64,000 nt of DNA. Source: Natronorubrum texcoconense. Its GTDB lineage: Archaea; Halobacteriota; Halobacteria; Halobacteriales; Natrialbaceae. Of this stretch, positions 36,235 to 55,086 are shown piece by piece. A program made the position numbers and the translations under genes. The first letter of the stretch is position 1, and every line of letters starts with the position of its first letter. The stretch lies in NCBI RefSeq assembly GCF_900100335.1, contig NZ_FNFE01000001.1:992001-1056000 (forward strand), read 5' to 3'. The notes under the pieces were generated by a model. It had not been told where the DNA came from. It saw nothing but the letters and a program-made list of their open reading frames with translations, and did no database searches.

Positions 36235-37126
36235 CATCTCTGAACCTGGTGTTGTTGTGAGTATCCGGTCCGCTCAAGCGGGCTGTAGACACTGCCAACG
36301 GTGATCTCTCCGACCTCTCCAACCGAGTTTCGCTCACGGATGCTCCGAGACGTCCAAGTTTGTGCTCACAGAGTTCGCGTATTATCGATCTAAAAGTAGT
36401 CTTATTTCCTCCGTATTCTACTTCCCATCGCTTCGATTATGGTTTCGAAAGCCCTCAGCGGCCTCGCGGTCGCTGCGGCGGATATCCTCCTTTCAGTCGG
36501 ATAGGGCCGCCGCAGCGACTCCACTGCGACGCGAGCCCACTTCGCCCTTTCAGTCCGCCAGGGTCGGCTGTATGCCTACCCTCCCCCGGTGAGGGGAAGC
36601 TTTGCTTTCGCGATGCTCGGAAGCGCACGCGCTTCCGTAGGATCGTGCGGCTCTCGCAGCGCTCGAGCCCCACTCTCGGCCATGGCGCGCGCTGACGGCG
36701 CGCCCGAGCACTACGAGGGTGCGCCGTCGACATTGTGCGAGGGGCGAGTGAGCGTAGCGAACGAGTCGGCTGGGGAGGATGGGGGCCTGTGGGTGGGACT
36801 GAAAGGGGCCGGCGCGTTGAGCGAACGCGAAGCGTTCGCGATGCTCGGGAGAGCTTGCTCTCCCGATGTTCGAGGAAGGCAGGCGACGCAAGGACCGCAA
36901 CCGACTGCAAGGAGGTGAGGCCCGCAGCGAGCCTCCCGACTCGAGCGCGCCGGGGGCTTTCGAGGTCGTTCCGTCTATTTTCCTCTTCTCTCCGTTACAT
37001 ACCGTGGACTGATGTTACTACAAACCAACCGATAACGCCTTCGTCGATACCGAATACGAGTATCGATCCGAAATCAAGCCGTCCCTAAACCACAACGCAT
37101 ACATCGACCCTCGCTAACAGACGGCC
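36235..37126. other. long gene-free stretch around a hairpin-rich element
   Basis: Open frames exist on both strands but overlap each other and consist of repeated Arg/Ser/Ala-rich runs without domain resemblance; they are taken as non-coding. Most of the stretch is the element at 36443-36965. The last ~110 nt up to the peroxiredoxin start are A/T-richer and probably hold its promoter. Confidence 0.6.
36443..36965. repeat. hairpin-rich palindromic element with inverted-repeat ends
   Basis: TCGAAAGCCC at 36445-36454 is the exact inverse of GGGCTTTCGA at 36954-36963. Beyond these, CGGTCGCTGCGGCGG on the left partly mirrors CCCGCAGCGAGCC on the right. Inside are several hairpins (GAAGCGCACGCGCTTCC; GAACGCGAAGCGTTC; GGGAGAGCTTGCTCTCCC; GTCGCTGCGGCGG/CCGCCGCAGCGAC). 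CTTTCAGTC occurs twice and its inverse GACTGAAAG once. Two copies of a unit with TTCGCGATGCTCGG between hairpins lie ~230 nt apart. No protein-coding evidence. Confidence 0.6.
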
Positions 37127-53077: not shown

Positions 53078-53725
53078 ATGTCCGATTCGAACGACCCGTC
53101 CGCCGGCTCCGGTCGGGAGCCCGAGGGGTCCCAGCCTGGGAGGGATACTACTGCCGACGAAGAGCTTCCTGCCGAAATCGTCGACGAAGCGGAGCGGCTC
53201 ACGCGGCTCGAGCGCACCGTCTCCGACGAGGGCGAAGCACAGGCTCACGCCGAGCGACGCGACAAGCTTCTCGACGACCACGACTTCACCTTTCGGATCC
53301 GCGAGGACGATGGCGACGACGTACTCGTACTCCACCCCGATGAGTGGCACGACGACGAGGCGGGCGTCATCCGAACCGACCGCATCGACGACATCTCGCG
53401 GGGCGTCGAGATCCCGCTCGAAGGCGCGGCGGATCCCGACGACTGGGACGCAGTGGAAACGCACAACCGCGACCTCGTCGAACGCGTCAGGGAACGCCAC
53501 GGCGACGTACACGGTGATAATGCCTCGCTGCTCGCCGACTTCGTCGGCAACCACTACGCGAAGCACATCGAGGACCTGGCCGGCGCGGAGCTACGGGAGT
53601 TCCGGTCGGAGTACTTCGTTAGAAACGCCTGGCCGTCGGACGCACAACGAGACGCGCTCGAGGAGTCGATCACGCTCGTCTACGAGACGGCCGGGGTATC
53701 GGTCCCTGAACGGCGGGTCCGGTGA
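53078..53725 (+). CDS. rnhA-operon protein, haloarchaeal family of unknown function
   Basis: The 215-aa protein has an unstructured N terminus (MSDSNDPSAGSGREPEGSQP), then LPAEIVDEAERLTRLERT, HDFTFRIREDDGDDVLVLHP and the C-terminal DFVGNHYAKHIEDLAGAELR with EFRSEYFVRNAWPSDAQ. It occupies the place next to rnhA where the 'rnhA operon protein' of haloarchaea (DUF7108, from memory) is annotated. No catalytic motif is visible. Confidence 0.8.
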   Translation: MSDSNDPSAGSGREPEGSQPGRDTTADEELPAEIVDEAERLTRLERTVSDEGEAQAHAERRDKLLDDHDFTFRIREDDGDDVLVLHPDEWHDDEAGVIRTDRIDDISRGVEIPLEGAADPDDWDAVETHNRDLVERVRERHGDVHGDNASLLADFVGNHYAKHIEDLAGAELREFRSEYFVRNAWPSDAQRDALEESITLVYETAGVSVPERRVR

Positions 53726-53728
53726 ATC

Positions 53729-53807
53729 GCCTCGGGGTCAAGTGGTTCGAGAATCGAAGATTCTCGTCATCACGAGAGACCTTTGCTCTCTCGATCGACC
53801 CCGAGGC
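53729..53807 (-). ncRNA. right-end structured region (candidate omega RNA) of the second tnpB element
   Basis: GCCTCGGGGTC (53729-53739) pairs with GACCCCGAGGC (53797-53807). Inside are CGAGAATC/GATTCTCG and CGAGAGA/TCTCTCG hairpins. The region overlaps the 3' end of tnpB, where IS200/IS605 guide RNAs are made. Confidence 0.5.
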
Positions 53808-55086
53808 TTCCTGATTCAACGACGCGCTTTGCAGACACGCGCTGAAAGTCAGCGGTGTCCGTAGGGAGCGCAGTCTCCACAGGCGTGTCTTCGGGCCATC
53901 CCAACCCTAATTTAGAAAATCCACGTTGTAGGACGTTCATCGCCGTCGCAAAATCGCACGCGATTTTGCTGCCCGTCAGACGTAGTCTGACGACCGCGTT
54001 CGCATCTCTATCCGTCTCAAACCCGCAAGACGGACACGAATGTTCACGTACCCAGATAGGCTTTGCCGTCTTCACGCCACACGATGCACACTCTTTCGTC
54101 GTTCCACGAGCAGGTACTTGCACAACGTGTGTACCGTACAAGTCGCCCTTATATTCGAGGAGTGTGATGAACTGTCGCCACGCTACATCCTGCTTATTCC
54201 GAGCGTTCCCATCGCTCTGGAGCATTCCAGCTACGTCGAGGTCTTCGACGAATACGGCGTCGTACTCTGTGACGAGCCACGTTGTGATTTTGTGCTGGTA
54301 GTCCAGCACTTTTCGCTGAATCTTCCGCTTGACCTTGGCGACTTCTTGGCGTTGTTTCTCCCAGTTGTTCGACCCTTGCTCCTTGCGCGAGAGTTTGCGC
54401 TGTTCTCGGCGCAAGCGTTCGTACTCATCTTCGAGGTCGATCCAATCCACGGTCTTACCGTCGCTGGTGTGGATGTAGTTCAAGATACCGAGGTCGATTC
54501 CGACGCTATTTCTCGCGTTAAGCGAGTCTACGTCGGGTTTCTCTGGAACGTGTTCGTCGTCCGTTTCGAGACTGAACGAGACGAACCACTCACCCGTTAC
54601 TTCCTTCTTCAGCGTGACTTCTTTGATAGTGGAGTGTTCGGTGAGTGGGCGGTGGTATCGGATTTTCACCCAGCCGATTTTACTGAAGCGGACGTACGCG
54701 AACCCGTTTCGGCCCCTCTTGTTATCAAGGTCGAAGCCTGACTGGTTGTACGTGACGCTTCGGTATTCGGCGGGTGATTGCCGTTTGAGCCATCCTACGT
54801 TGTATCCTTTCTCTTTCTTCTTGCGAAGGTTTGAGAGGTTGTCGTGGAAGCGTGCGACAGTGGCTTGGGCGGCTTTCGAGTGAAGTTCCGCGAATACGGG
54901 CCACCGCCGTTTCCACTCTGGGAGTTTGTTGTTCTGCTGGTATTCGCTTGGTTTGTCGTCGTCGGGACTGATAGTGTAGTCCCATCGGACGTGGTTGTAG
55001 AGTTGGCGATGAACATCCAGGTGATGTTCGGCAGCCGTCGCTACCTCGCCGCTTGGATAGGCGCGGTAACGGTGGCTGTATTCCAT
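53770..55086 (-). CDS. tnpB: TnpB with an in-frame palindromic insertion
   Basis: The 438-aa protein starts MEYSHRYRAYPSGEVATAAE. RuvC acids are in VGIDLGILNYIHTSDG (Asp) and AVFVEDLDVAGML (Glu). The zinc ribbon is KECASCGVKTAKP with SCPSCGFETDRDANA. The third RuvC motif normally reads DRDxNAA-xNxLxRG; here DRDANA is followed by 18 extra residues (VVRLRLTGSKIACDFATA) before MNVLQRG. The extra 54 nt are two perfect palindromes in frame, so the catalytic Asp is retained. Activity is uncertain. Confidence 0.9.
   Translation of the reverse strand: MEYSHRYRAYPSGEVATAAEHHLDVHRQLYNHVRWDYTISPDDDKPSEYQQNNKLPEWKRRWPVFAELHSKAAQATVARFHDNLSNLRKKKEKGYNVGWLKRQSPAEYRSVTYNQSGFDLDNKRGRNGFAYVRFSKIGWVKIRYHRPLTEHSTIKEVTLKKEVTGEWFVSFSLETDDEHVPEKPDVDSLNARNSVGIDLGILNYIHTSDGKTVDWIDLEDEYERLRREQRKLSRKEQGSNNWEKQRQEVAKVKRKIQRKVLDYQHKITTWLVTEYDAVFVEDLDVAGMLQSDGNARNKQDVAWRQFITLLEYKGDLYGTHVVQVPARGTTKECASCGVKTAKPIWVREHSCPSCGFETDRDANAVVRLRLTGSKIACDFATAMNVLQRGFSKLGLGWPEDTPVETALPTDTADFQRVSAKRVVESGSLGVDRESKGLS
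53942..53995. repeat. 54-nt double palindrome inside tnpB
   Basis: GCAAAATCG-CACG-CGATTTTGC (53948-53969) and CGTCAGAC-GTA-GTCTGACG (53974-53992) lie side by side and encode 18 residues absent from the normal TnpB motif. Length is a multiple of three, so the frame is kept. Confidence 0.75.

What the first reader, a model, noticed from the sequence alone, without database searches (positions are those of the whole stretch)
53942..53995. In-frame palindromic insertion inside the third RuvC motif of a TnpB
The conserved DRD-x-NA...N-x-L-x-RG block is split by exactly 54 nt made of two perfect palindromes (22 and 19 nt). They add 18 residues while keeping the frame and the catalytic Asp. Coding-region palindromic insertions are known in Rickettsia (RPEs) but are not something I know in haloarchaeal transposases. 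The insert could be a new small mobile repeat or a self-limiting change of the nuclease.
Basis: seen in the sequence. Interest (0 to 1): 0.6.

Follow-up and report, generated by a model that had tools for sequence, protein, structure and literature searches.

The report
Mobile double-hairpin insert in haloarchaeal TnpB
A 51-letter piece of DNA made of two hairpins sits in frame inside a salt-loving archaeon's TnpB nuclease gene; it belongs to a family of tiny, apparently mobile double hairpins that recur at fixed spots in transposon genes and sometimes in ordinary genes.

Summary
The insert is 51 nt (17 residues; 53944-53994, minus strand), not 54, placed three residues after the third RuvC Asp of an intact 438-aa TnpB. 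The same unit occurs at exactly the same codon in all 24 matches found in a collection of 84,980 species, all haloarchaea. On a 147-gene tnpB tree, 19 carriers need 17 changes. The unit is 95% identical between carriers, while flanks fall to 54-74% between subfamilies.

It belongs to a wider family of 46-60-bp double hairpins flanked by CG dinucleotides (NCG|..RACG|), in either orientation and with different stems. They recur at several fixed sites in the last ~200 nt of tnpB (the omegaRNA-coding end), upstream of tnpB, and in tnpA. They also occur in frame in two non-transposon genes: acs of this genome (+17 aa) and an ABC transporter (+19 aa), both empty in close relatives.

Best reading: an archaeal, REPIN/Rickettsia-RPE-like mobile mini-element that often hits IS200/IS605 transposons. 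The enzyme is unknown; a Y1 (HUH) transposase in trans is the leading guess. No transposition was observed.

The parts
53770..55086 (-). tnpB (IS200/IS605, IS1341-type), intact ORF of 438 aa, RNA-guided endonuclease family
53944..53994 (-). 51-nt double-hairpin unit (site A): GTCGTCAGACTACGTCTGACGGGCAGCAAAATCGCGTGCGATTTTGCGACG, 17 in-frame residues VVRLRLTGSKIACDFAT
   Evidence: comparison with empty homologues
53974..53992 (-). hairpin 1 of the unit, 8-bp arms, 3-nt loop (TAC on the minus strand)
53948..53969 (-). hairpin 2 of the unit, 10-bp arms, 2-nt loop (GT on the minus strand)
53995..53996 (-). left flanking CG; also present in the empty site
53944..53946 (-). right-end ACG of the unit (second copy of CG)
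54004..54012 (-). DRD of the third RuvC motif; its last Asp (D361) stands three residues before the insert
53722..53943 (-). presumed omegaRNA-coding 3' end up to the right-end TTCAC motif; hot region for such units
53748..53793 (-). second double-hairpin unit (site E class), in the loop of the terminal right-end hairpin
53729..53807 (-). terminal right-end hairpin, arms GCCTCGGGGTC / GACCCCGAGGC (53729-53739 and 53797-53807)

Best explanation
The insert is one copy of a non-coding mobile mini-element, 46-60 bp long: CGTY - hairpin 1 - short linker - hairpin 2 - RACG. It enters DNA at a CG dinucleotide, leaves a CG on both sides, and can go in either way round. Copies survive where they do little harm: in frame in coding sequence, and in loops or junctions of the omegaRNA that overlaps the 3' end of tnpB. 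Shown here: a discrete unit, a conserved skeleton, CG flanks, both orientations, repeated gain or loss at one codon, empty sites in close relatives, and copies in tnpA, acs and an ABC transporter gene. Inferred: that it moves as a hairpin-forming single strand, cut and joined in trans by a Y1 (HUH) transposase of the IS200/IS605 type, as REPINs are thought to be by RAYTs (about 40% likely). Mobility by some enzyme is the part I hold at about 80%.
For: (1) Same unit at the same codon in 13/13 sites of 392 haloarchaeal genomes and 24/24 in the 84,980-species collection, including divergent ADYNA-type TnpBs. (2) 19 carriers need 17 changes on the tnpB tree (shuffled mean 18.1; starred branches alone force 8). 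(3) Unit 95% identical, flanks 74% left and 54% right between subfamilies; third codon positions 56/94/63%. (4) Skeleton GTCnTCAGA..TCTGAYGKGC..RACG shared by sites A, B, F and codon 118, with different but self-complementary stems; both tags in 41 of 61 unique double hairpins. (5) Reverse orientation at the same site in L164 and both orientations at the upstream hot spot. (6) In-frame copies absent from relatives: acs, 51 nt, empty in nine homologous copies incl. one 96% identical; ABC transporter, 57 nt with repeat GACGT, empty in seven incl. one 96% identical. (7) tnpA genes also carry units. (8) Length is a multiple of 3 at sites A (21/24), B and F, but 46 nt at site C, where the unit supplies the stop. 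(9) Y1 transposases occur in this genome and in 21 of 26 sampled.
Against: No strain-level polymorphism or excision was seen. In tnpB one unit type goes with one site (A at A, B at B), which short-tract recombination between tnpB copies could also explain; the last 9 nt left of the unit are 91% identical. Units do not flank tnpA systematically as REPs flank RAYT genes (8 of 30 tnpA loci have any double hairpin). Insertion in both orientations with a CG on both sides would also suit a recombinase with a CG core. D- and E-class hairpins, including the second pair in the window, do not obey the CG rule fully.
Confidence: 0.75

Rival explanations
1. The unit arose once in an ancestral tnpB and has been passed to other tnpB copies by homologous recombination or gene conversion, with many losses; it is not itself mobile.
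For: One unit type per site; conserved left flank AACGCG; tnpB copies are numerous and could recombine.
Against: Flanks return to the recipient's own subfamily within a few codons on the right. Related units lie in acs, an ABC transporter and tnpA, where tnpB homology cannot guide exchange. Reverse orientation at the same site.
Confidence: 0.15
2. The hairpins are a functional module of the omegaRNA (stability, TnpB loading, guide display), kept by selection at the RNA level.
For: Most tnpB units lie in the omegaRNA-coding end; B, F and E map to unpaired parts of the predicted omegaRNA and C to a bulge; the window RNA folds far better than shuffles (z -5.2) with both hairpins autonomous.
Against: Most tnpBs lack any given unit and no clade keeps site A. 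Loops and stems vary freely. Similar units lie in acs and an ABC transporter. A strong z-score is expected from any palindrome.
Confidence: 0.1
3. A mobile unit, but moved by a site-specific recombinase with a CG core (serine- or tyrosine-type) or by template switching, rather than by a Y1 transposase.
For: A palindromic 2-bp core would explain a CG on both sides and both orientations.
Against: No recombinase gene was linked to the units here; hairpin pairs are typical of Y1/HUH substrates (established knowledge of IS200/IS605 and REP elements).
Confidence: 0.3
4. Chance palindromes or an assembly artefact.
For: GC-rich genomes hold many short palindromes (93 in the window against 43-66 in controls).
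Against: 0 and 0.04 chance matches in shuffles; independent assemblies of many organisms carry the same unit.
Confidence: 0.01

Closest known systems
REPINs / BIMEs with RAYT transposases (bacteria; PMC3116915)
   Same: Two short hairpins in inverted arrangement, tagged ends, non-coding, thought to be moved in trans by a Y1 transposase.
   Different: CG-flanked CGTY/RACG ends instead of GTAG; no linked RAYT seen; concentrated in IS605 genes and found inside coding sequence; archaeal.
CGTC-tagged REPs, including Rickettsia RPE-4 and RPE-6 (PMC3733652)
   Same: CGTC-like tag, dimers, in-frame copies inside genes, no dedicated transposase known.
   Different: Their loops are 4-5 nt and stems begin with complementary A/T pairs; here loops are mostly 3 nt and stems begin TCAGA, GCAAA, CGAAA. 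No archaeal members are reported there.
SMR-A small mobile repeats of Haloquadratum (PMC3119063)
   Same: Transposase-free repeats of a haloarchaeon that preferentially hit IS605-type transposons and PATEs; mobilisation enigmatic.
   Different: About 110 bp, terminal inverted repeats, mostly in untranslated ends; here 46-60 bp, two hairpins, inside ORFs too.
PATEs of Haloquadratum, incl. 52-bp terminal-only forms (PMC3119063)
   Same: Tiny palindrome-bearing elements related to IS605 ends; a 52-bp form may be mobile.
   Different: Derived from fused transposon ends by core deletion; similarity of the present units to IS605 ends was not shown.
Mitochondrial double-hairpin elements and yeast GC clusters (PMC2800124, PMC4478555; comparison partly from memory)
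   Same: Hairpins with a short linker, tens of bp, patchy and apparently mobile, sometimes in coding genes.
   Different: Organelle genomes of eukaryotes; no sequence relation tested.

Membership tests
REPIN/REP (GTAG class) | GTAG tag at one end of each hairpin | tested here: not met
   ends are CGTY / RACG in 41 of 61 unique units
REPIN/REP (GTAG class) | units flank a RAYT gene | tested here: inconclusive
   Y1 genes are present, but only 8 of 30 tnpA loci have a double hairpin nearby or inside
CGTC-tagged REPs (incl. Rickettsia RPE-4/6) | terminal CGTC tag | tested here: met
   CGTC/CGTT (or CGGTC) left, RACG right; one CG also exists in the empty site
CGTC-tagged REPs (incl. Rickettsia RPE-4/6) | 8-9-bp stems starting with A/T pairs, loops of 4-5 nt | tested here: not met
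   stems 7-10 bp starting TCAGA/GCAAA/CGAAA, loops mostly 3 nt, 2 nt in hairpin 2 of this copy
SMR-A | about 110 bp with terminal inverted repeats, no target duplication | tested here: not met
   46-60 bp; CG or a longer short repeat on both sides
SMR-A | preference for IS605-type transposons | tested here: met
   8 of 23 sampled double hairpins lie at tnpB genes; over 50 in the last 75 codons or right end of 143 tnpB loci, 1 in codons 1-362 (some loci were fetched because they carry the unit)
PATE (IS605-derived) | ends related to IS605 transposon ends | not tested
   unit sequences were not compared with mapped left and right ends of resident tnpA elements
IS200/IS605 TnpB (the host gene) | OrfB_IS605 and TNB zinc-ribbon domains, DRDxNA RuvC motif | tested here: met

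The most novel reading that the evidence does not exclude
The site-A unit is a homing mini-element: it recognises one conserved codon block of tnpB (the DxNA of RuvC III) and re-inserts there in any TnpB lineage, a hyperparasite of RNA-guided-nuclease transposons that uses a TnpB-, omegaRNA- or TnpA-dependent step.
Probability: 0.25. Interest if true: 0.85.

Novelty: new variant of a known kind. Interest (0 to 1): 0.62.

Why it matters
In-frame palindromic mobile elements are known from Rickettsia and some other bacteria; no archaeal family was found in the papers searched. This one reshapes TnpB and TnpA proteins and the region coding the TnpB guide RNA, and it adds 17-19 residues to metabolic and transport enzymes while leaving them in frame. 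It offers ready pairs of filled and empty genes to ask how TnpB tolerates extra residues next to its catalytic Asp, and a test case for what moves REP-like elements that have no transposase of their own.

Tried and rejected
AlphaFold2 with a 40-row alignment gave pLDDT 64 overall and about 22-24 over the insert, so it cannot say whether the insert is a surface loop. Rfam gave no omegaRNA match above threshold. The phage collection had no match. A comparison of ORF integrity (12/19 carriers against 121/128 empty genes open upstream) was dropped: empty genes had been collected by protein match, carriers by DNA pattern. The 'RuvC-specific' reading was rejected because related units occur at other tnpB sites and in other genes. 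Chance in a GC-rich genome was rejected by shuffles and by independent assemblies.

Full report
WHAT IS THERE. The tnpB gene lies on the minus strand at 55086-53770 and reads as an intact protein of 438 aa. It matches OrfB_IS605 and the Cas12f1-like TNB domain, and solved TnpB structures. Three residues after the last Asp of the third RuvC motif (DRDANA) it carries VVRLRLTGSKIACDFAT, absent from close homologues (DRDANAAMNVL). The DNA is GTC-[GTCAGAC TAC GTCTGAC]-GGGCA-[GCAAAATCGC GT GCGATTTTGC]-GACG: two hairpins and a short linker. Neither is expected by chance.

SAME UNIT, SAME CODON, ELSEWHERE. An exact search for hairpin 2 in 392 genomes of the order found 13 sites, all at this codon of tnpB or of a tnpB remnant. 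A search for hairpin 1 plus linker in one genome for each of 84,980 species found 24 loci, all haloarchaea, all at this codon, including TnpBs with ADYNA instead of DRDANA. Plasmid remnants add versions with other stems (GCAAACGC, GCAAACTTGT, GCAAAGTCGC, GCAAGATCGC), mostly still self-complementary. In L164 the unit sits at the same place but reversed relative to tnpB. Hairpin loops occur as both reverse complements (GT/AC, TAC/GTA), so single hairpins appear to flip in place.

REPEATED GAIN OR LOSS. On a tree of 147 tnpB genes built only from sequence upstream of the site, 19 carriers need 17 changes, about as many as shuffled labels (18.1); branches with strong support alone force 8. The insert is 95% identical among 17 carriers. 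Between subfamilies the 30 nt on the left are 74% and on the right 54% identical; third codon positions are 56% left, 94% inside and 63% right. The unit therefore moves, or is exchanged, as a discrete piece.

A WIDER FAMILY. In 143 tnpB loci, more than 50 double hairpins lie in the part from site A to the right end, and one in codons 1-362; another cluster lies 125-560 nt upstream of the start codon. About a dozen of these loci had been fetched because they carry the unit, so the counts are not frequencies. Fixed sites recur: A (this one), B (before TPVETA, 57-60 nt), C (after SAKRV, 46 nt, supplies a stop), D (terminal stem), E (terminal loop; the window has one at 53748-53793), and F (54 nt). 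Units at A, B, F and codon 118 share the skeleton GTCnTCAGA..TCTGAYGKGC..RACG with different stems. Of 61 unique double hairpins, 41 carry a CGTY-type tag on the left and RACG on the right; comparison with empty sites shows that one CG is already present in the target. Because CG is a palindrome, this rule also allows both orientations.

IN FRAME WHERE IT MUST BE. Site-A units are 48 or 51 nt in 21 of 24 loci. When the 10-bp stem has the usual 3-nt loop the unit is 52 nt and breaks the frame (L218, L229; L228 is also 52 nt). Sites B and F are multiples of three; site C, close to the C-terminus, is 46 nt. This looks like selection on what survives rather than a property of insertion.

OUTSIDE TNPB. 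Related units lie inside Y1 tnpA genes, two of them in frame in one gene (L275). An ABC transporter of genome G145 has gained 19 residues: TACGACGT|TCGAAAGAGC...GATTCTGATGACGT|CGATCG. Seven homologues in relatives, one 96% identical, are empty. In the window's own genome the acetyl-CoA synthetase gene has a 51-nt unit starting with a CGTCAGAC hairpin. Nine homologous copies are empty (one 96% identical), and a decayed copy sits in G371. In 864 kb sampled from this genome, 23 double hairpins were found against 2 in a control, 8 of them at tnpB genes; the sample included tnpB-bearing stretches on purpose, so the ratio is not a genome-wide estimate.

OMEGARNA. The 3' end of tnpB overlaps its guide RNA; in Halobacterium these are the sotRNAs (PMC12558985). 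Consensus folds of empty copies place site B in an unpaired junction, F in an internal loop, C at a bulge, E in the terminal loop, D in the terminal stem, and A about 40 nt upstream of the first hairpin. The window RNA folds with both inserted hairpins autonomous (z -5.2). Self-folding units in loops would be tolerated both by the RNA and, if in frame, by the protein. This can explain why survivors cluster there, though not the exact reuse of one codon.

HOW IT PROBABLY WORKS (inference). Most likely a non-autonomous element of REPIN type: two tagged hairpins recognised as single strand by a Y1 transposase, joined at a CG. Y1 genes are present here and in most relatives, but the units are not systematically attached to them, and CG on both sides would also suit a recombinase with a palindromic core. 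Movement itself was not observed. Whether the 17 residues change TnpB activity is unknown; the AlphaFold model is uninformative there.

COMPARISON. REPINs (PMC3116915) and CGTC-tagged REPs, which include Rickettsia RPE-4/6 (PMC3733652), are the nearest in design; Haloquadratum SMR-A elements (PMC3119063) are the nearest in habit, as transposase-free repeats that attack IS605 transposons. Defining features of each were tested and not fully met, so I file the family as a new variant of the double-hairpin/REP-doublet kind, not as a member of any of them. Eight literature searches found no archaeal description; most subscription papers were not searchable.

Noticed in passing
G000:C3:106774-106818 (L199:6773-6817): In-frame 51-nt double-hairpin unit in the acetyl-CoA synthetase gene of the same genome; relatives lack it, G371 has a decayed copy.
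   Followed up: yes
window 36821-36866: Another double hairpin (GCGAACGC..GCGTTCGC, TCGGGAGAGC..GCTCTCCCGA) with no convincing gene over it; a GGYTGGGGAGGAYG motif also stands beside similar pairs at L176:124 and L201:11867, possibly one repeated non-coding element.
   Followed up: partly
window 53808-53883 minus: Sub-threshold match to RAGATH-18 RNA (21.9 bits, gathering 44.9; E 0.23), a family reported to be the guide RNA of IS607-type TnpB (PMC11061315), inside the presumed omegaRNA.
   Followed up: no
window 53722-53726: The right-end TTCAC of the element overlaps the TGA stop of the neighbouring plus-strand gene (53078-53725), so the omegaRNA guide would read into that gene.
   Followed up: no
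L275 (G174:C6:31900-33500): A Y1 tnpA gene with two in-frame double-hairpin inserts and an open 176-codon frame.
   Followed up: partly
L193:5319-5364 (G000:C8): A site-A-like 52-nt unit at codon ~118 of another tnpB of this genome splits that gene by frameshift.
   Followed up: partly
L001, L002, L004, L007 and others, hairpin loops: Loops of single hairpins appear in both reverse-complement forms, as if each hairpin flips in place.
   Followed up: partly
125-560 nt upstream of tnpB in L109, L112, L122, L126, L143, L145, L157, L159: A second hot spot of units, in both orientations, upstream of tnpB; in several loci a small ribbon-helix-helix-like ORF lies next to it.
   Followed up: partly
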